64,000 nt of DNA from Streptomyces reniochalinae (GTDB taxonomy: Bacteria > Actinomycetota > Actinomycetes > Streptomycetales > Streptomycetaceae): the NCBI RefSeq assembly GCF_003323735.1, contig NZ_QOIM01000017.1, positions 101,456 to 165,455 on the forward strand. Reading direction: 5' to 3'. The notes beneath the pieces are model-generated. The model saw nothing but the letters and a program-made list of their open reading frames with translations, was not told the DNA's origin and did not search any database. Positions 20,461 through 33,151 of this stretch are shown here, one piece after another (positions within the stretch are counted from its first letter, which is position 1; each line of letters starts with the position of its first letter). The position numbers were made by a program, and so were the translations under genes.

Positions 20461-20517
20461 ATGGCGACTAGGATCATCAGCACGACCGCGCACCGAAATG
20501 AGGATGTGTCATGGTAG
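20461..20517 (+). CDS. 18-residue ORF overlapping the xdhA start
   Basis: ATG 20461 opens an 18-codon frame (MATRIISTTAHRNEDVSW) that stops at TAG 20515, 7 bases inside xdhA. An AAAGAGAAAG stretch lies upstream as a weak ribosome site. If translated it would couple translation to xdhA. It could also be chance. Confidence 0.3.
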   Translation: MATRIISTTAHRNEDVSW

Positions 20518-22000
20518 CGGCGCGGACCACGGTCAATGGGAAGGTCACACCGATTTCCCCGGCCGCACCCCATACATCGGTTCTGGATTTCCTGCGTGAG
20601 CGCGGCCTCACCGGGAGCAAGGAAGGCTGCGCCGAGGGCGAATGCGGCGCGTGTTCGGTGCTGGTGGCCCGTCCGGGGGTGAACAAGCCCACCGACTGGG
20701 TGGCGGTCAACGCCTGCCTGGTTCCGGCCGCGGCCCTCGACGGGCAGGAGATCGTCACCTCCGAGGGCCTCGCCACCGCGGGCGAACCCGGCACGCCGCC
20801 CACGCTGCACCAGGTGCAGGAGGAGATGGCGCTCCGCGGCGGCTCCCAGTGCGGTTACTGCACACCGGGCTTCGTGTGCAGCATGGCCGCCGAGTACTAC
20901 CGGCCGGACCGCTGCGCGCACGCGGGCGCGGCCGACGGCGGCCCGGCCGACACCGACGCGGGCGGCACGACCGACGCCGAGCACGGTCCGAACGGGTTCG
21001 ACCTGCACTCGCTCAGCGGAAACCTGTGCCGCTGCACCGGTTACCGTCCGATCCGCGACGCCGCCTTCGCGCTCGGCGCGCCCACCGAGGACGACCCGCT
21101 GGCACAGCGCCGCGAGCAGTCGCCGCCGGCACCCGTCGCCACCGAGTACACCCAGGGCGACAGCGTGTTCCTGCGGCCGGGCACGCTGAGCGAAGCGCTG
21201 CGGGTGCTGCGCGAGCGGCCCGAGGCGGTGGTGGTCGCCGGGAGCACCGACTGGGGTGTGGAGGTGAACATCCGCTCCCGCCGGGCGGAGTGCGTGGTCG
21301 CCATCGACCGGCTGCCCGAACTGCGGGGCCTGAGCGTCGAGTCCGACCACGTCGAGATCGGCGCCGCGCAGACGCTCACCGAGATCGAGCGCCGTCTCGA
21401 CGGCCGCGTCCCGCTGCTGGCACAACTGTTCCCGCAGTTCGCCTCCCGGCTCATCCGCAACGGCGCGACCCTCGGCGGCAACTTGGGCACCGGCTCTCCC
21501 ATCGGCGACAGCCCGCCCGTGCTGCTCGCCTTGGAGGCGTCGCTGGTGCTCGCCGACGCCGACGGTGAGCGCGAGGTCCCGCTGGCGGACTACTTCACCG
21601 GCTACCGGCAGAGCGTGCGCCGCCCCGGCGAACTGATCCGCGCGGTGCGCATCCCGCTGCCGCTGTCGCCGGTCGCGGCCTTCCACAAGATCGCCAAACG
21701 GCGCTTCGACGACATCTCCAGCGTGGCGGTCGCGTTCGCGCTGGACATCGAGGACGGCCTCGTACGCAAGGCGCGCATCGGGCTGGGCGGCGTCGCCGCC
21801 ACGCCGGTCCGCGCCCTGGCCACCGAGGCGGCCCTGGAGGGCAAGCCGTGGGTGCGGGAGACCGCCGAGGCCGCAGCCCAGGTGCTGCGGGCCCAGGGAA
21901 CCCCGATGAACGACCACCGGGCCAGCGCCGAGTACCGCTCCGCGATGCTCGGCCAGAGCCTGCTGAAGCTGTACGCGGAAACCACGGAGGCGGTGTCGTC

Positions 22001-22004
<4 letters not shown>
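20511..22004 (+). CDS. xdhA: Xanthine dehydrogenase, iron-sulfur/FAD subunit
   Basis: The protein has 497 residues. It carries the two [2Fe-2S] clusters and FAD of molybdenum hydroxylase. The plant-type cluster motif GCAEGECGACSVLV is at about residue 43. The second cluster motifs are SQCGYCTPGF and NLCRCTGYRPI. The FAD domain follows from about 205 (AVVVAGSTDWGVEV, IRNGATLGGNLGTGSPIGDSPP), ending in the CO dehydrogenase-type C-terminal domain. Start ATG 20511 follows GAGGA. It overlaps xdhB by four bases. Xanthine and hypoxanthine are oxidised to urate with the large subunit. Confidence 0.95.
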
Positions 22005-24410
<2,406 letters not shown>

Positions 24411-24418
<8 letters not shown>

Positions 24419-25229
24419 CACGACCTGGGTGGCCGCGGTCGCGCGGTTGCGGGCACGCCGGGAACCCGGCGTGCTGGTGACCGTCGCGACCGTGCGCGGC
24501 CACGCGCCCCGCCGGGCCGGTGCCAAACTCGTCGTGGGGCGGACGGGGGCCTGGGGCTCGATCGGCGGCGGCAACATCGAGGCGGTGGCCATCGACCGGG
24601 CCCGCGAGCGGATCGGTACCGGCGACCCGGAGCCCGAACTGATGGACTTCGCCCTCAACGACAAGGTCACCAACCGGCACGGTGTGCAGTGCTGCGGCGG
24701 AGCCGTCACCGTACTGCTCGAACCGCTGCCTGTGGTGCCCGCGGTGGCGCTCTTCGGCGTCGGGCACGTCGGTCTCGAGCTGGCCCGCATCCTGGCGCGC
24801 CACAGCCTCGACCTGCACCTGGTCGACACCCGCACCGACATGCTCACCGACGAACGGCTCGACGTGCTGGCGGACGCGGTGGCGCAGGTCCACGTCCACC
24901 ACAACCCGCTGCTCCCCGAGGAGGCGCTCGCGGAGCTGGCGCCCGGCACCCACGTCCTGATCATGACTCATGACCACGCCGAGGACGCCGCGCTGGCCGA
25001 CGCCGCCTTGCGCACCACGGGACTCGGCTCGATCGGACTGATCGGCTCGGCCGCCAAGTGGTCGCGCTTCCGGAAACGTCTGGCCACCGAGGGCGGTCAC
25101 GACGACGCCGCGATCGACCGGATCAAGACCCCGATCGGCCTGACCGAGATCACCGGCAAGGAGCCCGCCACGATCGCGGTGAGCGTCGCGGCGGACCTGC
25201 TGCGGACCTTCGAGGCGGACCGCGGCTGA
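24411..25229 (+). CDS. xdhC: XdhC molybdenum cofactor insertion protein
   Basis: The protein has 272 residues. It binds and sulfurates molybdenum cofactor and delivers it to xanthine dehydrogenase. The N-terminal XdhC/CoxI domain (GVLVTVATVRGHAPRRAGAK, GSIGGGNIE) and the Rossmann domain (LFGVGHVGLELARIL, VDTRTDMLTDERLDVL, MTHDHAEDAALADAAL) are complete. It ends the operon. Confidence 0.95.
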
Positions 25230-25251: not shown

Positions 25252-26754
25252 TCAGGGCCCTGCCCGGCGTACGGCTCGTACCGCGTCGTCGTCCGTGGCC
25301 AGCCGGGCCGTGACCCAGGCCAGCGCCGGGGCGTTCCGGTCGAGGTCTTCGCGGTCGATCGCGTCCAGGCGGTCGCACGGCTGGTGATAGCAGGGGTCGA
25401 ACATCTGCCCAGCGGTGCCGCCGAAGAGTTTCTGCTGTGCCGCCGTCTTCACCCCCAGGTTGCCTCCGTCGATGCCGCCGACCGGAAGGCCCGCCGCCTG
25501 GAAGACCAGATGGTCGGAGCCGATGGCGCCCGGGTCCTGGCGCTCGAAGGGCAGCCCGTGCCGGGTGAAGTAGCCGGCGAACAGTTCGGCGAGCTCGTGG
25601 CTGCCGCCGGACCCCGTGTCCCACACGAAACGCCCGGAGTTGGAGGGCGCCAGCAGCTCTGCGTTGAGGACGGCCGCGATCCTGCCGCGCTCGGCGGGGG
25701 AGAGGTGGTCCACGTAGTACCCGGAGCCGACGTCGAGGATCTCCTCCGCGCCCCACCACATGAATCTGACCTTGTTGCGCACCGCGTTTTGGTGCGGCGC
25801 CATCGCCAGCGCCGTCTGCAGGACGGTCGCGGCCGTCGAGCCGTTGTCGTTGACGCCGGGTGCCTCGGGGACGCTGTCCAAGTGCCCGCCCAGCACGACC
25901 ACGTCGTCGGGATCGCCGCCGCGGGTCTCGGCGATGAGGTTGACCGTCGTGCGCTCCACGTTCCGCGCCCGCAGCGTCAGGCGCACCCGAGCCCCGGGCC
26001 GCGCCGCCGCCTGACGGGCCAGCCGCTCCCCGTCGGTCTGCGAGACCATGCCCATGGGGATGCTGAAATCCTCCGGGGCCATGGCCATGAGGCGGTAGTT
26101 GTTCCGCGGAGACGGGGTCGGGTAGTACATCACCACAGCCCGTGCACCGGCCCGCGCGGCGACCTGCTGCTGGTGCGCGAACCCGCAGGCGTTCCGGGCC
26201 AGTACGACGACGGAGCCGCGGACGGCCACGCCGTCGTAGTCGCCGGCGTCGCAGCCGGTTCTGCCCTCGGGCAGGGCCACGGCCCGTGCGGTGAGGCCGC
26301 GCGCGGCGGTCGACGGAGTGAACCTGGTCATCAGTACGGGCACGTCGCGGGCCCTGCCGTGGCCCGTCCGCACGGACAACCGCTCGCTCGTGACGTCGAA
26401 GTCGGTGTAGGGGACCCGCTGCCGCCGCACCGCGTACCCCGCGTTCTCCAGCTGCCCGGCGACGTACCGCGCCGAACGTGTGAACCCGGGCCGGTTGTAG
26501 CCGCGGTCGCCGCCGCTGTCGTCCGCGATCCGCTGGAAGGCGCGCAGGTGGCGGAACACGTCACGGCCGCGTACCCGAGACGCCAGCCGGTCGGCCGTCA
26601 GCGCGCGCGTACCGGCGGCGTGTGCCGTGCCGTCCCCGGCGGGCGGAGTCGCGGCGGTGGCCACCGTCTGCTGACCCGCCAGGCAGGTCAGCGTGAGCGC
26701 GGCTGCCGCCGCCGGTCTCAGCACCCGGCGCAGCGGGCGGGAAGAGATACGCAC
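25252..26754 (-). CDS. Secreted M28 family aminopeptidase with PA domain
   Basis: The protein has 500 residues with a signal peptide (RRVLRPAAAAALTLTCLAGQ, cleavage probably near ATAA). A PA-type insert covers about 140-260. The M28 zinc site appears as GGHLDSVPEAPGVNDNGS, WWGAEEILDVGSG and GAIGSDHLVFQAAGLP. At the position of the usual second Asp ligand (the N-x-D-M region) it reads NAELLAP, a Glu. It lies 193 bases downstream of the P450 gene on the same strand, so read-through from the precursor/P450 unit is possible. It could trim the Met-Arg leader of the pentapeptide, but this is inference and it may be an unrelated extracellular peptidase. Confidence 0.9.
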   Translation of the reverse strand: MRISSRPLRRVLRPAAAAALTLTCLAGQQTVATAATPPAGDGTAHAAGTRALTADRLASRVRGRDVFRHLRAFQRIADDSGGDRGYNRPGFTRSARYVAGQLENAGYAVRRQRVPYTDFDVTSERLSVRTGHGRARDVPVLMTRFTPSTAARGLTARAVALPEGRTGCDAGDYDGVAVRGSVVVLARNACGFAHQQQVAARAGARAVVMYYPTPSPRNNYRLMAMAPEDFSIPMGMVSQTDGERLARQAAARPGARVRLTLRARNVERTTVNLIAETRGGDPDDVVVLGGHLDSVPEAPGVNDNGSTAATVLQTALAMAPHQNAVRNKVRFMWWGAEEILDVGSGYYVDHLSPAERGRIAAVLNAELLAPSNSGRFVWDTGSGGSHELAELFAGYFTRHGLPFERQDPGAIGSDHLVFQAAGLPVGGIDGGNLGVKTAAQQKLFGGTAGQMFDPCYHQPCDRLDAIDREDLDRNAPALAWVTARLATDDDAVRAVRRAGP

Positions 26755-26947: not shown

Positions 26948-28147
26948 TCACGGACCCGTGTCGCGTACCCGGACGGGGAGCGTCCGCAGTCCCCGCAGGG
27001 TCGCGGTCGGCTCGTACTCGGCCGTGCCGGACGGGACGAACCCGAGGCGCGCCTCGCGCAGCGCCGCGAGCACGGCGCGCAGTTGCAGCGTGGCCAGGCC
27101 CGCGCCCAGGCAGGCGTGCGCGCCCCGGCCGAAGGCCAGGTGCTGCCCCCTGCGGCGGCCGAGGTCGACGGTGTCCGGATCGGGGAAGACGTCCGGGTCG
27201 CGGTTGGCGGCGCCCAGCAGCAGCACCAGCACCTGTCCGCGCCCTATCCGCTGCCCGGCCACCTCGCTGTCCCGCACGCACACCCGGGCGTCCGCCTGCA
27301 CCGGTCCCTCCAGGCGCAGCAGTTCGTCCACCAGCGTGTCGAGCCGCCCCCCGGCGGCCGCGCGTTCCGGCAGCGTCTGATCGCCCGTCACCAGGCGGGC
27401 GAGCGCGTTGCCCAGCAGGCGGCTGACCGACTCGTAGCCCGCGTGCAGCACGGCGCGCAGCGAGTTGGCCAGCACGGCCTGCGAGACCTCGGGGGTGTGT
27501 GCGCGGGCCGCCCGCACGGCCCCGACGAAACCGCCCTCGTCGGCCGTGTCCAGCCATGTGCCGACCATGCGGCTCAGCTCTTGTCTCGCCTCGGTGCCAG
27601 GATCGGCGCGCGCGGGATCGAGCCCGGCGTCCATGCTGCGGACGATGGCGTTCGACATCTCCTCGAACCTGGGCCCGTCGGGGGCGGCGACGCCCAGGAA
27701 GTCGCACATCGTGTGCAGGGCGAGGGGGCGGGCGACCTCGCTGACGAGATCGACCGGCCGGTCCGTGCCGCGTACGGCAGCCAGGCGTTGCGCGGAGAGC
27801 CGCGCGGCCGTGTCGGTCACCGCCGTGTGCGAGCGGGTGTGCAGCGCGGAGACGAGCAGGTGCCGGATGGCTCCGTGGGCGGGCGGGTCGAGGGACTGCA
27901 CGCTCAGCAGCGCTTCGGGGATCTCCTCTCCCACCCTGCGGAAGTCCGAGCCGAACGAGGCCGAGTCGCCGAGAACCGCGCGGCACTCGGCGTGCCCGGT
28001 CAGGACCCAGGAGTCGAGTTGCCCGTGCCAGTAGACGCGCCGGTGTTCGCGCAGCCGCCGGTAGAAGGGGTGCGGTGCGGCGATGACCTCGGGCGCCAGG
28101 GGGTCGTAGCGGGTGTCCCGCTGTCGGTGCGCCGCGGCTCCCGTCAT
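26948..28147 (-). CDS. bytO: Cytochrome P450, probable peptide-crosslinking (biarylitide-type)
   Basis: The protein has 399 residues, a soluble bacterial P450. The heme-binding loop FGRGAHACLGAGLA has its axial cysteine at residue 346. The ExxR pair is in VDELLRLEGPV. The I-helix reads LHAGYESVSR, with Tyr/Glu-Ser in place of the usual acid-Thr pair. The start ATG 28147 follows GAGAGG. Its partner is the pentapeptide gene 142 bases upstream on the same strand. In the biarylitide family such a P450 joins the Tyr3 and His5 side chains of an MxYxH precursor through a C-C or C-N bond. I infer the same reaction here. No ferredoxin gene is adjacent, so electron donors must come from elsewhere. Confidence 0.88.
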   Translation of the reverse strand: MTGAAAHRQRDTRYDPLAPEVIAAPHPFYRRLREHRRVYWHGQLDSWVLTGHAECRAVLGDSASFGSDFRRVGEEIPEALLSVQSLDPPAHGAIRHLLVSALHTRSHTAVTDTAARLSAQRLAAVRGTDRPVDLVSEVARPLALHTMCDFLGVAAPDGPRFEEMSNAIVRSMDAGLDPARADPGTEARQELSRMVGTWLDTADEGGFVGAVRAARAHTPEVSQAVLANSLRAVLHAGYESVSRLLGNALARLVTGDQTLPERAAAGGRLDTLVDELLRLEGPVQADARVCVRDSEVAGQRIGRGQVLVLLLGAANRDPDVFPDPDTVDLGRRRGQHLAFGRGAHACLGAGLATLQLRAVLAALREARLGFVPSGTAEYEPTATLRGLRTLPVRVRDTGP

Positions 28148-28244
28148 GGTCTGCCTCTCTCGGGGTGCGGTTTTGCAAGTGCGGTTCTCGGGGTGCGGAT
28201 TCCGGCCAGGTGCCGAGGAGCGGGGAGGTGGGGCGGGGCGTCGC

Positions 28245-28276
28245 CCGCGGCCACGCGGTCAGCCGCGTGGCCGCGG
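28245..28276. terminator. Perfect 14-bp hairpin between precursor and P450 genes
   Basis: CCGCGGCCACGCGG (28245-28258), loop TCAG, then its exact complement (28263-28276). It begins 14 bases after the precursor stop codon. It may act as a partial terminator that makes precursor mRNA more abundant than P450 mRNA, or protect the short upstream message from 3' exonucleases. Confidence 0.7.
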
Positions 28277-28289
28277 TGACGTGGTGTCA

Positions 28290-28307
28290 TCAGTGGATGT
28301 AGCGCAT
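28290..28307 (-). CDS. bytA: Pentapeptide RiPP precursor MRYIH (biarylitide-type)
   Basis: The whole gene is 18 bases: ATG CGC TAC ATC CAC TGA, encoding Met-Arg-Tyr-Ile-His. An AAGGAG ribosome binding site lies at 28314-28319, 6-7 bases before the ATG, far better than chance for an accidental start. The residues fit the M-x-Y-x-H motif of biarylitide precursors, in which Met-Arg is leader and Tyr-x-His is the crosslinked core. The P450 gene follows on the same strand. Ile at position 4 makes the predicted product a Tyr-Ile-His biaryl tripeptide. Identification rests on motif, ribosome site and context; the gene is too short for similarity search. Confidence 0.87.
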   Translation of the reverse strand: MRYIH

Positions 28308-28771
28308 GGCACTCTCCTTTCCGCGAAGGGGTGTCAGCAACGCCGTGGACACGGACACGGAGTCGACGGCGAGTTCATCAGGGCCCCGGTATTCCGGGGC
28401 GGGAGGAATTCCATCCGGAAGCGGGGGCGCCAGTTCCTACCGGGAGGCGCCTGCATAACCATGGCGGTGGCGGTGTTCACTCATCGGAAGAAAAGCAATC
28501 CGCGCATCCCGCCTTCCCTGTTGGTGCGGCAGCGGCCGGAAGTCAGCCGTCGTCACCCTCCGACAGCGATTGCGTTCCGCGCAAGGGGCGGTACGTCGAA
28601 AAACGCCACTTTTCCACCGGTGGAAAAGTGAACGACGTATTCCGCCGTGACGTATGGGGACTGTGTCCGGAACAGTGAATGCGGAACGGGCGAGCGGGGC
28701 ACGCACATGTTTGGCGAGCCGCTCGGCATGACGCGACTGCAAAGGTGTGTACCTATGGAGATGCGGGTGGA
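28308..28771. other. Divergent control region of the pentapeptide locus
   Basis: These 464 bases lie between the precursor gene and the divergent winged-helix regulator. They hold a small hairpin (CCCCGG-TATT-CCGGGG, 28384-28399) and the 24-bp palindrome listed separately. I could not find a near-consensus promoter for the precursor. No other gene is visible. Confidence 0.55.
28607..28630. promoter_or_regulatory. 24-bp perfect palindromic operator
   Basis: The left arm CACTTTTCCACC (28607-28618) is followed without spacer by its exact complement (28619-28630). It is unusually AT-containing for this genome. It contains TTTCCA and TGGAAA half-sites, the hexamers found in IclR-type operators. 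It lies 142 bases before the adjacent regulator with an IclR-like winged helix. Confidence 0.7.
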
Positions 28772-29401
28772 GTGCAGACCACGCAGAAGACGGAGACCGG
28801 GGCGTACTTCGTGAGCGCGGCACGGGGATTCGCGTTACTGGCAGCTCTCGCGGAACTGGAGGAGGAGGACCCGGGCGCCCACCGGTTGGGCGTCATCGCC
28901 CGCCGCGCGGGCCTGAGCCCCTCCCAGGCGAACAAGCTCCTCGCTCAGGCCGAGCAGCACGGACTGGTCCGCCGGACCGGCTACGGCCGCTACGCGTTGT
29001 CCCCGCACGCGGCGGCGACAGGAACGACGGAGACAGACAGGACGACGCGTCCCACCCCGGCGGGTCCGACGGCGCGTCCCGCGGCAGCTTCGACGGCGGG
29101 TCCCGCGGCGCGGCGCGCGGCGGCCGCGTCGGCACGCCCCTCGACGGGCCCGGCGGTACGGTCCACGGCGGGGACGGCGCGTCCACCGGCGGCGGTGCCG
29201 GCTGTGCCGGTGGCGCCGGCGGTCCGCAGGGCGAGGGCGCTGGCGGCGGGAGGGGCGAAGACGCCGGTGACGGCGCCCGGGCCGGGGCCGCTGACCGCAC
29301 GGGAGCGGCCGGGACGGACCCCCGCGGCGGGAGCGGCACCGGCACGGAGGGCGCTGCCCGGAGCCGGGCAGCCCCCGGTGTCCACCGTGCCGGCACGGTA
29401 G
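28772..29401 (+). CDS. IclR-like winged-helix regulator with low-complexity tail, TTA-containing
   Basis: The protein has about 209 residues from GTG 28772. The first 80 form a winged helix-turn-helix (GFALLAALAELEEEDPGAHR, VIARRAGLSPSQANKLLAQA, GLVRRTGYGRYALSP) similar to the DNA-binding domain of IclR proteins, but the IclR ligand domain is missing. The tail is Ala/Pro/Thr/Arg-rich. A TTA leucine codon at 28835-28837 makes expression bldA-dependent. From about 29020 onward the coding-like base pattern moves to the next frame, which stays open to 29559, so a frameshift in the tail is possible. Probable regulator of the divergent pentapeptide/P450 genes. Confidence 0.65.
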   Translation: MQTTQKTETGAYFVSAARGFALLAALAELEEEDPGAHRLGVIARRAGLSPSQANKLLAQAEQHGLVRRTGYGRYALSPHAAATGTTETDRTTRPTPAGPTARPAAASTAGPAARRAAAASARPSTGPAVRSTAGTARPPAAVPAVPVAPAVRRARALAAGGAKTPVTAPGPGPLTARERPGRTPAAGAAPARRALPGAGQPPVSTVPAR

Positions 29402-29543: not shown

Positions 29544-29960
29544 TCACACCTTGCGGTAGCTGTACGCCTCCTCGGCCGCCGCCGCCACCGCGGCCAGGTC
29601 GCCGCCGCCCGCGGCCGTCACCACGGCGCCGATCGCCCCCTCCACCAGCGGGGCGTCCAGCAGCCGGGACGGGTCGGGCAGTTCGTCACCCTCGGCCAGC
29701 AGCGTCTTGACCGTCAGTACCGCGCTGCCCAGGTCGGCGAGGAGTGCGACGCCCGCCCCCGCGTCCACACGCCGGGCCGCCTCGGTGATCACCTCTTCGC
29801 TCGTGCCCAGGCCGCCGTCCGGGAGGCCGCCCGCGCCGGTGACCGGAGCGTCGGGCACCCCGGCGAGAGCGGCGGCCATCGAGGAGACCGCGTCGGCGAC
29901 CTGCTTGCTGTGGGAGACCAGCACGATCCCCACCCGGGCTCCCTCGCTCGTGTCCGCCAT
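29544..29960 (-). CDS. dhaM: Dihydroxyacetone kinase phosphotransfer subunit DhaM
   Basis: The protein has 138 residues, a single EIIA-mannose-type domain with the phosphorylatable histidine in VGIVLVSHSK (His17) and GTSEEVITEAARR, LLADLGSAVLTVKTLL. It lacks the HPr and EI-like domains of E. coli DhaM, as is usual in actinobacteria, and so takes phosphate from HPr. ATG 29960 is preferred over the overlapping GTG 29966 because AGGGAG is then correctly spaced. It ends the dhaKLM operon. Confidence 0.9.
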   Translation of the reverse strand: MADTSEGARVGIVLVSHSKQVADAVSSMAAALAGVPDAPVTGAGGLPDGGLGTSEEVITEAARRVDAGAGVALLADLGSAVLTVKTLLAEGDELPDPSRLLDAPLVEGAIGAVVTAAGGGDLAAVAAAAEEAYSYRKV

Positions 29961-29962
29961 GC

Positions 29963-30643
29963 TCACGCGCTCCCTTCCGCGTCGCCGCCCGCTTCGGCGA
30001 GGGCCGCCATCAGCAGGGCCGCCGAGGCGGCTCCCGGGTCCTGGTGGCCGATGCTCCGCTCGCCCAGATAGCTGGCGCGGCCCTTGCGGGCCTGGAGCGG
30101 AGTGGTCTCCTCCGCGCCCTTCTCGGCCGCCGTCCTGGCCGCTCGCAGATCCTTGCCGCCGCTGTCCGCCAGCGCGTCGGCGGCCGGCCTGAGCGCGTCC
30201 AGCATCGTCTTGTCGCCCGCGGTGGCGCCGCCGAGCTGGGCCACCGCGTCGATGCCCGCGCTCAGCGCCCCGGCCAGCTCCTCGCCGGTCACCACCTCCG
30301 CGTCACCGAGCGTCTTGCCCGTGCGGCGCAGCAGCGTCCCGTACAGCGGGCCCGAGGCGCCGCCGACCGTCGAGACGAGTTTGCGGCCGGCCGTCATCAG
30401 CACCGAGCCCGGCGTGGCGGGGACGCCCTCGTCCAGCTCGCTGCGGACCGCCTCGAACCCGCGGCGCATGTTGCCGCCGTGGTCGGCGTCGCCGATCGCC
30501 GAGTCCAGCTCCGTCAGCCGGTCGGCCTCGCGGTCGACCGCGTCCGCCGCGGCCCGCATCCAGCGCGCGAAGAAGGCGGCGTCCAAGCCCTCCGCGCTCC
30601 CGCCGGTGCCCTCGCCTGCGCCGTTCGTCACCTTGCCGCTCAC
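29963..30643 (-). CDS. dhaL: Dihydroxyacetone kinase ADP-binding subunit DhaL
   Basis: The protein has 226 residues from GTG 30643, with GAAGGAG 5 bases upstream. It holds the tightly bound ADP that shuttles phosphate from DhaM to dihydroxyacetone on DhaK. The Mg-ADP motif LDSAIGDADHGGNMRRGF, plus GGASGPLYGTLL and ERSIGHQDPGAASAALL, are intact. DhaM follows within four bases. Confidence 0.92.
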   Translation of the reverse strand: MSGKVTNGAGEGTGGSAEGLDAAFFARWMRAAADAVDREADRLTELDSAIGDADHGGNMRRGFEAVRSELDEGVPATPGSVLMTAGRKLVSTVGGASGPLYGTLLRRTGKTLGDAEVVTGEELAGALSAGIDAVAQLGGATAGDKTMLDALRPAADALADSGGKDLRAARTAAEKGAEETTPLQARKGRASYLGERSIGHQDPGAASAALLMAALAEAGGDAEGSA

Positions 30644-30862
30644 CACTGCTCCTTCGCCGCTGTCCCGGTCTTCTCTCGTGCTGCCGCGTGCGGGGCGTAC
30701 CGCGCCACGGCCACCACGGCGGCGCGTCCCGCCCCGCACGCGGCGCCACGGCCACGCCGGAATCCCGTCGTACCGGATTCAGTACCGGATCTGTACCGGA
30801 TCCCGGCGGGCCAGGACCGCCTCGCGCCGGTGGTCCGTGTCACCGCCGCTGTGCGCTCCTGC

Positions 30863-31855
30863 TCAGACGCCCCACCGCAGCCCCGGGGTGCGCACAGGCG
30901 CATCCCACAGCCGCAGCAGCTCCTCGTCGGCCGGGCACAGCGTCACCGAGGCGCCGGCCATGTCGAGCGAGGTCACATAGTTGCCGACGAGGGTACGGGC
31001 GACCGGAACCCGCCGCTCGGCCAGGACCCGGTGCACCTCACCGCAGAAGCCGTACAGCTCCAGCAGCGGCGTCGCCCCCATGCCGTTGACCAGCGCCAGC
31101 ACCGGCTGCTGGGAGGGCAGCTCCTCCAGCACGGCGTCAACGGCGGCCTGAGCGATCTCACCCGAGGTCATCATCGCGCGCCGCTCCCGGCCCGGCTCCC
31201 CGTGGATGCCGACGCCCAGCTCCAGCTCACCCGGCGGCAGCTCGAACATGGGGCCGCCCTTCGACGGGGTGCTGCACGCGCTCAGCGCCACCCCGAAACT
31301 GCGCGACGACTCGGCCACCCGACGCGCGGTGTCCGCGACCCGCTCCAGCGGCGCGCCCTCGGCGGCGAGCGCCCCAGCGATCTTCTCCACGAACAGGGTC
31401 GCGCCGGTGCCCCGGCGCCCGGCCGTGTGGGTGCTGTCGGTGACGGCGACATCGTCTTGGACCAGTACCTTGGCGAGGCGGACGCCCTCGTCTTCGGCGA
31501 GCTCGGCCGCCATGTCGAAGTTCAGGACGTCGCCGGTGTAGTTCTTGACGACGAACAGCACGCCCTCGCCGCTGTCGACGGCCGCCGCGGCGGCGACCAT
31601 CTGGTCGGGAACGGGAGAGGTGAAGACCTCGCCGGGGCACGCGGCGTCCAGCATCCCCGGCCCGACGAAACCTCCGTGCAGCGGCTCGTGACCCGAGCCG
31701 CCCCCCGAGACCAGGGCCACCTTCCCCGCCACGGGCGCGTCCCGGCGGACCACGATCCGCCTGTCCACATCGACCGTTAGCTCCGGATGCGCCGCGGCCA
31801 TCCCGCGCAGCGCGTCGGGGACCACGGACTCGGGCACGTTGATCAGCATTCGCAT
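30863..31855 (-). CDS. dhaK: Dihydroxyacetone kinase substrate-binding subunit DhaK
   Basis: The protein has 330 residues from ATG 31855, preceded by GGAGG. It binds dihydroxyacetone covalently. The catalytic His56 (GGGSGHEPLHGGF) and the covalent His218 (GVGIHGEPG) fall at the same numbers as in E. coli DhaK, and NYTGDVLNF is conserved. With DhaL and DhaM it makes dihydroxyacetone phosphate using PTS phosphate. A 219-base gap separates it from dhaL. Confidence 0.94.
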   Translation of the reverse strand: MRMLINVPESVVPDALRGMAAAHPELTVDVDRRIVVRRDAPVAGKVALVSGGGSGHEPLHGGFVGPGMLDAACPGEVFTSPVPDQMVAAAAAVDSGEGVLFVVKNYTGDVLNFDMAAELAEDEGVRLAKVLVQDDVAVTDSTHTAGRRGTGATLFVEKIAGALAAEGAPLERVADTARRVAESSRSFGVALSACSTPSKGGPMFELPPGELELGVGIHGEPGRERRAMMTSGEIAQAAVDAVLEELPSQQPVLALVNGMGATPLLELYGFCGEVHRVLAERRVPVARTLVGNYVTSLDMAGASVTLCPADEELLRLWDAPVRTPGLRWGV

Positions 31856-32161
31856 GTGTACCTCCGGGCGAGCGTAGCAGCCACGTCGGCGCACCTCGTG
31901 GCCGCGAAGTGCGCGCGCACCCCGGGGGAGTCGTGCGTCCCGCGGGAGTCGTGCACGCCCCAGGAGGGGGCGTGCATCCTGCGGGGAGTCAACCACGCCC
32001 CAGGAGAGTCGTGCGCGTCTCGGGGAGTCGTGTGCGTCATCGGCACCCTGCCGGGTGCCGCCCGGGAGCGGCGCGCGGCCACCGCAGGACCGGTGGTCGC
32101 ACGCCGTGGGGGGGGAACCGCGCACGACCTCACCGGAGCCGAGCCGATAGGCTCCGACGCC
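31856..32161. other. Divergent region between dhaK and deaminase genes
   Basis: This 306-base stretch has no gene. Its centre is a set of degenerate tandem repeats, listed separately. Confidence 0.5.
31921..32038. repeat. Degenerate tandem repeats of about 18-22 bases
   Basis: Units built on GGGAGTCGTGC plus a variable CGTCCCGC / ACGCCCCAGGA half recur five to six times: GAGTCGTGC at 31928, 31946, 32007 and 32025, and CACGCCCCAGGAG at 31953 and 31993. They lie in the divergent promoter region of dhaK and the deaminase gene. The purpose is unknown. Confidence 0.55.
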
Positions 32162-33151
32162 ATGGCAGCACCGATCCCCAAAGCAGAACTGCACCTCCAC
32201 ATCGAGGGCACCCTCGAGCCCGAACTCGCTTTCGCCCTCGCCGAGGGCAACGGGCTGACTCTCCCCTTCGCCTCGCAGGACGACCTGCGGGCCGCCTACT
32301 CCTTCCAGGACCTCCAGTCCTTCCTGGACCTGTACTACGCGCTGATGACGGTGCTGCGCACGGAGGACGACTTCGCCGACCTGGCCGACGCCTACCTCAC
32401 CCGCGCCCGTGAGCAGGGCGTACGCCACGCGGAGATCTTCTTCGACCCGCAGGCGCACACCGCGCGCGGCGTCCCCGTGGGCACCGTGATCCGCGGGCTC
32501 GCGCGGGCGCTGGACGCGGCGCCGGAGAAGCACGGCATCACCACGCGGCTGATCATGTGCTTCCTGCGCGATCACAGCGCCGGCTCCGCGCTGCGTACGT
32601 TCGAGGAAGCCCGCCCCCACCTGGAGCGCATCACCGCAATCGGGCTGGACTCGGCGGAGGTCGGCAACCCGCCCGCGAAGTTCCGTGAGGTGTTCGAGCT
32701 GGCGCGGGAGGCGGGCCTGAAGTGTGTGGCGCACGCCGGTGAGGAGGGCCCGCCCGCCAACGTGTGGGAGGCCCTGGACGTGCTGGGCGTGGACCGTGTC
32801 GATCACGGGGTGCGCAGCATGGAGGATCCAAAACTGGTGGCGCGGCTGGCCGCCGACCAGGTGCCGCTGACGGTGTGCCCCCTGTCGAACCTGCGCCTGC
32901 GCGTCGTCGACCGCCTCGCCGACCATCCGCTGCCCGCGATGCTCGACGCGGGGCTGATGGTCACCGTCAACTCCGACGACCCCTCCTACTTCGGCGGCTA
33001 CGCCGAGGACAACTTCACCGCCGTGCGCGAGGCGCTCGGGCTGGACGAGGAGACGCTGCGCGCCTTGGCCCGCAACTCCTTCCAGGCATCCTTCCTCGAC
33101 GAGACGACACGCGAGACCTACCTGAAGGAGGTCGACGCCCACGTCTTCTGA
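32162..33151 (+). CDS. Adenine (or adenosine) deaminase
   Basis: The protein has 329 residues from ATG 32162. It is a zinc hydrolase of the adenosine deaminase superfamily. The metal-binding start is AELHLHIEGTLEPEL; further motifs are VAHAGEEGPPANVWEAL (catalytic Glu), DRVDHGVRSMEDP and VTVNSDDPSYFG. The HIEGTLEPE form and NPPAKF segment are features of the branch that contains adenine deaminases, so adenine to hypoxanthine is the likelier reaction; adenosine cannot be excluded. Hypoxanthine would feed the xanthine dehydrogenase in this window. Confidence 0.88.
   Translation: MAAPIPKAELHLHIEGTLEPELAFALAEGNGLTLPFASQDDLRAAYSFQDLQSFLDLYYALMTVLRTEDDFADLADAYLTRAREQGVRHAEIFFDPQAHTARGVPVGTVIRGLARALDAAPEKHGITTRLIMCFLRDHSAGSALRTFEEARPHLERITAIGLDSAEVGNPPAKFREVFELAREAGLKCVAHAGEEGPPANVWEALDVLGVDRVDHGVRSMEDPKLVARLAADQVPLTVCPLSNLRLRVVDRLADHPLPAMLDAGLMVTVNSDDPSYFGGYAEDNFTAVREALGLDEETLRALARNSFQASFLDETTRETYLKEVDAHVF

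What the first reader, a model, noticed from the sequence alone, without database searches (positions are those of the whole stretch)
28290..28307. An 18-bp gene for the pentapeptide MRYIH next to a P450: a minimal biarylitide-type RiPP
The sequence shows ATG CGC TAC ATC CAC TGA with AAGGAG correctly spaced, on the same strand as a P450 starting 142 bases downstream. Established knowledge: biarylitide precursors are pentapeptides of the form MxYxH, the smallest known precursor genes, and their P450 crosslinks Tyr3 to His5. Inference: this locus makes a crosslinked Tyr-Ile-His tripeptide, perhaps N-acetylated. Standard annotation would miss such a gene.
Basis: partly seen in the sequence, partly recalled or inferred. 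Interest (0 to 1): 0.95.

Follow-up and report, generated by a model that had tools for sequence, protein, structure and literature searches.

The report
Pentapeptide RiPP with its own protease
An 18-base gene for the five-residue peptide MRYIH lies beside a P450 gene whose enzyme is predicted to link the peptide's tyrosine to its histidine, and beside a peptidase gene, found next to this pair in most close relatives, whose enzyme would likely trim the product, a step for which characterised clusters of this kind are reported to encode no enzyme.

Summary
28290-28307(-) reads ATG CGC TAC ATC CAC TGA, with AAGGAG 6 nt upstream and a P450 gene 142 nt downstream. RBS + MxYxH-TGA occurs once in the 7.69-Mb genome: here. 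The P450 is 66% identical to P450Blt, a characterised biarylitide cross-linker. It groups with it (support 1.0) and keeps its key active-site residues, so a Tyr3-His5 C-N cross-link is predicted. All 11 distinct loci fetched for this P450 clade carry an MxYx[H/Y] gene. It is a biarylitide locus, a known RiPP kind.

It is a candidate leader-removing protease, which characterised biarylitide clusters are said to lack (PMC12951456). (2) A stem-loop with compensatory changes follows the 18-bp gene in 11 of 11 clade loci. Stems of at least 13 bp follow 25 of 28 non-MKYWH precursor genes, against 2.7% of random stretches and 13.6% of stretches after long ORFs. (3) A genome-unique palindrome lies between the precursor and a divergent HTH gene. 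No function was tested experimentally.

The parts
28290..28307 (-). bytA-like 18-bp gene, MRYIH (leader Met-Arg, core Tyr-Ile-His)
   Evidence: Read directly; unique RBS+MxYxH-TGA pattern in the genome; conserved in 11 of 11 fetched clade loci
28314..28319 (-). AAGGAG ribosome-binding site, 6 nt before ATG
   Evidence: Read directly; GAAAGGAG, GAAGGGAG or GGAAGGGAG at the same place in the orthologues
26948..28147 (-). Cytochrome P450, predicted Tyr3-His5 cross-linking enzyme (P450Blt clade)
   Evidence: Pfam p450; 8u2m 512.8 bits; tree, and residues 84/169/231/234/238/239 identical to P450Blt
28245..28276 (-). Stem-loop between the 18-bp gene and the P450: 14 complementary bp (12 of them in the minimum-energy fold), 4-nt loop, starting 13 nt after the stop
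   Evidence: 6 of 13 pairs show changes on both sides across 10 loci, 98.5% of cells paired
25252..26754 (-). M28 family (PA + Peptidase_M28) metallopeptidase with a signal-peptide-like N-terminus (judged by eye), predicted leader-removing aminopeptidase
   Evidence: Pfam; relatives of known structure include KP1, 1cp7 and YwaD; next to the P450 in 8 of 11 clade loci; own clade; catalytic motifs kept
28607..28630 (.). 24-bp perfect palindrome CACTTTTCCACCGGTGGAAAAGTG, predicted operator
   Evidence: core unique in the genome with up to 2 mismatches; inverted repeat kept in 7 of 7 loci of the syntenic subclade
28772..29401 (+). Divergent HTH (IclR-type DNA-binding domain) gene, predicted regulator; start codon (GTG) inferred, ORF open from 28679
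   Evidence: PF09339 E=4e-8; similar genes in the other six syntenic loci and in L137

Best explanation
This locus carries an 18-bp gene for MRYIH followed by a P450 gene of the P450Blt clade and an M28-family peptidase gene, and it most likely makes a cross-linked Tyr-Ile-His tripeptide (a biarylitide). Shown: the gene, its conservation and uniqueness, the P450's kinship and active-site residues, the linkage of the M28 gene, the stem-loop's conserved pairing and the palindrome. Inferred: (1) the divergent HTH protein binds the palindrome and controls transcription of bytA-P450-M28. (2) The ribosome makes (formyl-)MRYIH. The stem-loop just after the stop codon holds back transcription or protects the short message, so the precursor is made in excess over the P450. 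(3) The P450 binds the whole pentapeptide and joins a Tyr3 ring carbon to a His5 ring nitrogen (-2 H, [M+H]+ 717.350). (4) The M28 enzyme, which looks exported, acts as an aminopeptidase and removes Met and then Arg. It would stop at the cross-linked Tyr, leaving the cyclic tripeptide ([M+H]+ 430.208), possibly acetylated by a host enzyme (472.219).
For: gene and uniqueness; 11 of 11 fetched clade loci with MxYx[H/Y]; only codons 2, 4 and 5 vary; 4, 23, 62 with PMC10929621 (A231, H234, E238 control P450Blt; His234 linked to C-N bonding), all identical here; 17 + 35 (of 392 genus genomes the M28 above 800 bits occurs in exactly the 4 with the P450 above 600 bits); 37, 42, 69 (linked M28 also in L135 and L137 without the dha neighbourhood; own M28 clade, support 1.0; no close M28 elsewhere in the genomes of the 3 M28-less clade loci); 43, 53 (palindrome); 46, 63, 65 (stem-loop); 74 (no NO synthase in the genome, so no RufO-type nitration).
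Against: No product, transcript or enzyme activity was measured. The M28 gene is missing from 3 of 11 clade loci (L133, L134, L136), so it is not essential to the class. It looks secreted (by eye) while the P450 is cytoplasmic, and no exporter was seen among the ORFs scanned, so how the peptide meets the peptidase is open. The 4-of-392 co-occurrence is not independent, because the four genomes share the locus by descent. Product masses are calculated, not observed. The stem-loop lacks a T-run and the terminator scan did not report it. Some loci's downstream stretches do not stand out from dinucleotide shuffles, and 13.6% of stretches after long ORFs carry a comparable stem. Position 74 of the P450 is Glu, not Val as in P450Blt.
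Confidence: 0.85

Rival explanations
1. The M28 gene is only a neighbour; leader removal is by general host proteases, as proposed for other biarylitides.
For: It is absent from 3 of 11 clade loci. Of the 41 locus records given (34 of them with only about 1.5 kb flanks, so a more distant M28 gene would be missed) the one hit was L121, which is clade locus L137 again. Published clusters are described as working without a dedicated protease (PMC8708641, PMC12951456; passages).
Against: Linkage recurs in L135 and L137 where the dha genes are not found; the linked copies are a separate M28 clade, and G138, G368 and G088 keep a distinct, about 43%-identical paralogue elsewhere.
Confidence: 0.35
2. 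The P450 nitrates Tyr3 like RufO instead of cross-linking it.
For: RufO also takes a pentapeptide (MRYLH) from an 18-bp gene (PMC12186263, passages) and is a relative (9m47, 289 bits; taken to be RufO).
Against: Tree position is with P450Blt, not RufO; the RufO residues I74, N165, D169 and V240 are E, S, V and S here. No NO synthase (PF02898) is found in the whole 99.66%-complete genome, while two of the 14 control genomes give matches; the RufO-like locus L157 has one.
Confidence: 0.02
3. The 18-bp ORF is a regulatory leader peptide whose translation controls the stem-loop and P450 expression, not a substrate.
For: Short ORF directly followed by a strong conserved hairpin before the enzyme gene.
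Against: Tyr3 and His/Tyr5 are held while codons 2 and 4 change; the enzyme is kin to one whose MRYLH-bound structure is described (PMC10929621); in the MKYWH loci the ORF lies downstream of the P450, where it could not lead it.
Confidence: 0.04
4. The cross-link is C-C, as in Planomonospora biarylitides and the MRYVH product of SavB.
For: SavB makes a C-C link on MRYVH (PMC13417212), close to MRYIH and identical to the precursor of the nearest orthologue L001.
Against: The I-helix here is P450Blt-like (AVLHAGYES); the MRYYH locus L124 differs at 231, 234 and 238. His234 was linked to C-N bonding (PMC10929621).
Confidence: 0.12

Closest known systems
P450Blt biarylitide pathway, Micromonospora sp. 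MW-13 (MRYLH; PDB 8u2m by inference)
   Same: Pentapeptide precursor MRYxH; P450 in the same clade with 66% identity and identical key active-site residues
   Different: Position 4 is Ile; here a linked M28 peptidase gene and divergent HTH gene. I did not read the P450Blt neighbourhood.
Biarylitide MRYVH cluster of Saccharothrix variisporea (savA/B/T/H)
   Same: MRYVH differs from MRYIH by one residue; same precursor size and P450 logic (PMC13417212)
   Different: C-C cross-link; amidinotransferase and hydroxylase co-encoded; P450 described as BytO-like at the I-helix
Myxarylin pathway with prolyl oligopeptidase ProTM32
   Same: Cross-link first, then protease, as proposed here (PMC12951456, passages)
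   Different: Protease is a serine POP from another strain, encoded next to a related cluster; here a metallopeptidase of family M28 with conserved linkage
Rufomycin RufO/RufB (nitration plus aminopeptidase)
   Same: 18-bp gene, related P450 and a named aminopeptidase (PMC12186263, passages)
   Different: Nitrates Tyr and feeds an NRPS; RufO residues and NO synthase not present here. RufB's family was not established in my calls.

Membership tests
Biarylitide RiPP (bytA/bytO) | 18-bp gene encoding MxYx[H/Y/W] | tested here: met
   MRYIH, one site in the genome
Biarylitide RiPP (bytA/bytO) | P450 of the biarylitide cross-linking clade next to it | tested here: met
   same clade as P450Blt, support 1.0; 142 nt away
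Biarylitide RiPP (bytA/bytO) | Precursor conserved with the P450 in relatives | tested here: met
   11 of 11 distinct clade loci fetched
Biarylitide RiPP (bytA/bytO) | Cross-linked tripeptide product | not testable with these tools
   Needs enzyme assay or LC-MS; masses calculated
RufO-type pentapeptide nitration | RufO active-site residues (I74, N165, D169, V240) | tested here: not met
   E, S, V, S at these columns
RufO-type pentapeptide nitration | NO synthase to supply NO | tested here: not met
   0 matches to PF02898 in the own genome; 2 of 14 control genomes (B. subtilis, Deinobacterium chartae) match
M28 aminopeptidase (peptidase side) | Metal-ligand and catalytic motifs (HLD, NDN, AEE, Asp/Glu, CYH) | tested here: met
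   for the first four motifs, Glu instead of the commoner Asp at the fourth; CYH read in the alignment. Roles of the residues recalled, not from a call.
M28 aminopeptidase (peptidase side) | Aminopeptidase activity on the cross-linked peptide | not testable with these tools
   Needs enzyme assay

The most novel reading that the evidence does not exclude
A self-contained biarylitide pathway in which a dedicated M28 aminopeptidase trims the leader residue by residue until the cross-linked ring stops it, so that the cross-link itself defines the product's end. A hitherto undescribed stem-loop right after the 18-bp gene, present across most biarylitide operons, sets the precursor-to-enzyme ratio.
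Probability: 0.4. Interest if true: 0.7.

Novelty: new variant of a known kind. Interest (0 to 1): 0.52.

Why it matters
[quoted passage not shown] This clade offers a linked, separately evolved candidate that can be tested directly. The stem-loop after the 18-bp gene is a searchable mark that could help find genes too short for annotation. The closely related MRYIH, MRYIY and MRYFY systems, in which the two Tyr5 members differ at position 231 of the P450, are natural variants for studying what sets the cross-link.

Tried and rejected
Considered and rejected: a chance ORF (unique in the genome; conserved); RufO-type nitration (residues; no NO synthase in the genome); a nearby encoded acetyltransferase (none among the 19 ORFs scanned); the palindrome as a dha-operon terminator (it lies beyond the HTH gene, and the T-run seen in the window is not evident in the other syntenic loci except L001). 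Rfam gave no match for 27900-29000. The Pfam scan only says 'P450'; NCBIfam gave 8 P450 families, all below their cut-offs.

Paper searches covered only the held open-access library: MRYIH (0 papers hold it); biarylitide with hairpin (1 paper, a review seen as a listing only); biarylitide with aminopeptidase (3 papers). One search was too broad (15,165 papers, 20 listed, none holding 'biarylitide'). Supplementary tables of PMC13417212 could not be read, so this strain or its relatives may be among the 277 clusters. Not done: an empty-site test for the insertion; the native P450Blt neighbourhood; structure predictions; a signal-peptide predictor.

Full report
OBSERVATION. Read on the minus strand, window 28307-28290 is ATG CGC TAC ATC CAC TGA (MRYIH), with AAGGAG 6 nt upstream. 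A P450 ORF (399 aa) starts 142 nt downstream. The pattern GGAG-N4-9-ATG-NNN-TAY-NNN-CAY-TGA is found once in the 7.69-Mb genome, here, and its backwards control 0 times. The genome is taken to be a Streptomyces, because same-genus genomes G368 and G138 hold contigs of the same length and match as the named records L002 and L003.

THE P450. The best solved relative is 8u2m (512.8 bits), deposited as 'P450-SU1'. I take it to be P450Blt because its numbering fits A231/H234/E238/S239 in PMC10929621 (parts 1-2 of 3 read) and V74/V169/V287 in PMC12186263 (passages), and because 8ukz carries Ala at 238. The PDB entry itself was not read; 9m47 is likewise taken to be RufO. Identity is 257 of 390 positions (66%). 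A tree of 49 P450 sequences (L125 and L127 are overlapping records that score the same P450; four are unrelated P450s from the own genome) puts the window with P450Blt and ten other loci (support 1.0), apart from RufO. The residues at Blt positions 84, 169, 231, 234, 238 and 239 are the same as in P450Blt. Position 74 differs (Glu, against Val in P450Blt and Ile in RufO). PMC10929621 ties His234 to C-N bonding, so I predict a Tyr3-C to His5-N cross-link. Against this, SavB makes a C-C bond on the near-identical MRYVH (PMC13417212, parts 1-4 of 8 read, plus term look-ups), but it is described as BytO-like at the I-helix. No NO synthase is found in the genome.

CONSERVATION. The genus search found a related P450 (E at most 1e-70) in 36 of 392 genomes; 30 loci, the window's own included, were returned, and the six further matches were not examined. 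The 394-genome searches of class and family gave 9 and 8 genomes with matches at their own thresholds. Of the 43 P450 rows (which include the window's own copy, two loci fetched twice, the overlapping L125/L127 and one unrelated P450 from the same genome), 39 have an MxYx[H/Y]- or MRHAH-type gene in the locus. The four without are L097, L118, L126 and L082; L082 is the unrelated P450. The 11 distinct clade loci fetched (window, L001-L004, L132-L137) all have one: MRYIH 4, MRYVH 3, and one each of MRYIY, MRYFY, MGYAH and MSYRH. The two with Tyr5 have Gly or Ser at position 231 where the window has Ala. L134 (MRYVH) has Thr there, so the position is not strictly tied to residue 5.

THE M28 GENE. 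26754-25252 encodes a 500-aa PA + Peptidase_M28 protein with an N-terminus that looks to me like a signal peptide (no tool run). Relatives of known structure are keratinase KP1, the aminopeptidase 1cp7 and YwaD, which the PDB names 'Aminopeptidase Y (Arg Lys Leu preference)'. It is the next gene after the P450 in 8 of 11 clade loci (the window; the others). In six of these (window, L001-L004, L132) the dha genes lie on the other side, so synteny could explain the linkage. In L135 and L137 no dha gene is detected within the fetched 17.5-18 kb, yet the M28 gene (63% and 58% identical) is there. In 392 genus genomes an M28 above 800 bits is present in G000, G138, G368 and G088 only, exactly the four with a P450 above 600 bits (only the best 3-4 candidates per genome were scored); the next best M28 scores 329. 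A nearer-relatives search gave 1 of 61, the own genome. The four are related, so the Fisher value (1e-9) overstates the case. The eight linked copies form one clade against 16 unlinked ones (support 1.0). The genomes of the M28-less clade loci have no close M28 elsewhere (G740 only a 43% one; G827 and G900 none at E at most 1e-60). Outside the clade no M28 was seen next to the pentapeptide loci, most of which had short flanks. The catalytic motifs are kept, with Glu for the commoner Asp at one ligand position, as in 3 of the 16 unlinked proteins. [quoted passage not shown] RufB is named as an aminopeptidase acting on nitrated pentapeptide (PMC12186263, passages). A search for 'biarylitide' with 'aminopeptidase' gave 3 papers; I read passages of PMC12186263 and parts 1-2 of PMC10929621, and saw PMC13192836 as a listing only.

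THE STEM-LOOP. Thirteen nt after the stop codon 14 complementary base pairs with a 4-nt loop (12 pairs in the minimum-energy fold) lie between the 18-bp gene and the P450 (28276-28245). All 11 clade loci have a stem of at least 13 pairs (G-U and one mismatch allowed; L135's starts at +30). On a 10-sequence alignment (I left L137 out because its stem sequence is unlike the others) 98.5% of cells pair and 6 of 13 pairs have changes on both sides; sliding the partners drops pairing to 25-49%. Over all 40 distinct precursor genes scored, such a stem within 80 nt is found in 25 of 28 non-MKYWH genes and 3 of 12 MKYWH genes (which lie after the P450). The controls gave 2.7% of 2,520 random stretches and 13.6% of 125 stretches after long ORFs. 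The three misses are the first copies of two tandem pairs (L108, L115) and L117 (11 bp). Many of these sequences are related, so the counts are not independent. By shuffle z-score in 60 nt the picture is weaker for some: L111 -0.35, L114 -0.74, L117 -0.62, L135 +0.83 (its stem starts later), the first copies in L108 and L115 0.03 and 0.24; the window is -4.66 and the other clade loci except L135 are -3.3 to -5.4. Two literature searches did not show a report of it: one search's single paper was not read, and one search listed 20 of 15,165 papers, none on biarylitides. A DNA-level dyad is not excluded.

REGULATION. A divergent HTH gene (IclR-type domain only) has counterparts in the other six syntenic loci and L137. 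Between it and bytA lies CACTTTTCCACCGGTGGAAAAGTG (28607-28630). The core with up to 2 mismatches occurs nowhere else in the genome. The 7 syntenic loci keep the inverted repeat, with changed outer arms that still match in most (not in L132; L133 has one mismatch inside). L137 has only half-sites, read in the alignment, and the three loci without a detected HTH gene show no such repeat among their best inverted repeats. In the window it is also followed by a T-run and scores as terminator-like; in the other syntenic loci, apart from L001, no such T-run is evident. I favour an operator.

VERDICT. The finding is right. It is a member of a known RiPP kind, with a linked M28 peptidase gene and a conserved stem-loop as features I have not seen described. 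That the P450 cross-links MRYIH is very likely; that M28 removes the leader is likely (about 0.6); the role of the stem-loop is a guess with good structural support. The calculated [M+H]+ for acetyl-YVH (458.203) equals the m/z 458 quoted in PMC13417212 for its YVH product, which suggests to me that acetylation happens in that host too; the text as I read it calls the product unmodified beyond the cross-link.

Noticed in passing
L132:8008 (MRYIY) and L133:7989 (MRYFY): Close orthologues whose precursor ends in Tyr rather than His; their P450s have Gly and Ser at Blt position 231 but keep His234. They would be expected to make Tyr-Tyr cross-links.
   Followed up: partly
L134:6593-11733, L135:5366-7782, L136:5313-10657: Clade loci with a B12-binding radical SAM protein and DUF5825 upstream of the pentapeptide gene; L134 and L136 also have an O-methyltransferase after the P450. 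PMC13417212's main text holds 'methyltransferase' 0 times and 'radical' only in a reference; its supplement was not read.
   Followed up: partly
L115:2855 and 2792; L108:1318 and 1236: Tandem duplicate 18-bp genes (MRYLH twice, MRHAH twice); a stem of 13 bp or more follows only the second copy.
   Followed up: partly
L157:7631-12833: RufO-like P450 with NO synthase, a Trp prenyltransferase-like ORF and MRYLH further upstream, resembling a rufomycin/ilamycin cluster (the resemblance is recalled).
   Followed up: no
window 20511-25229 (+) and 29544-33151: Flanking genes look like primary metabolism: molybdopterin xanthine-dehydrogenase-type subunits with XdhC, dihydroxyacetone kinase DhaM/DhaL/DhaK, adenosine deaminase-like ORF.
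   Followed up: no
L118, L126, L097: Related P450s for which no pentapeptide gene of the searched forms was found in the roughly 4-kb locus; for L097 (RufO-like) it may lie further away.
   Followed up: no
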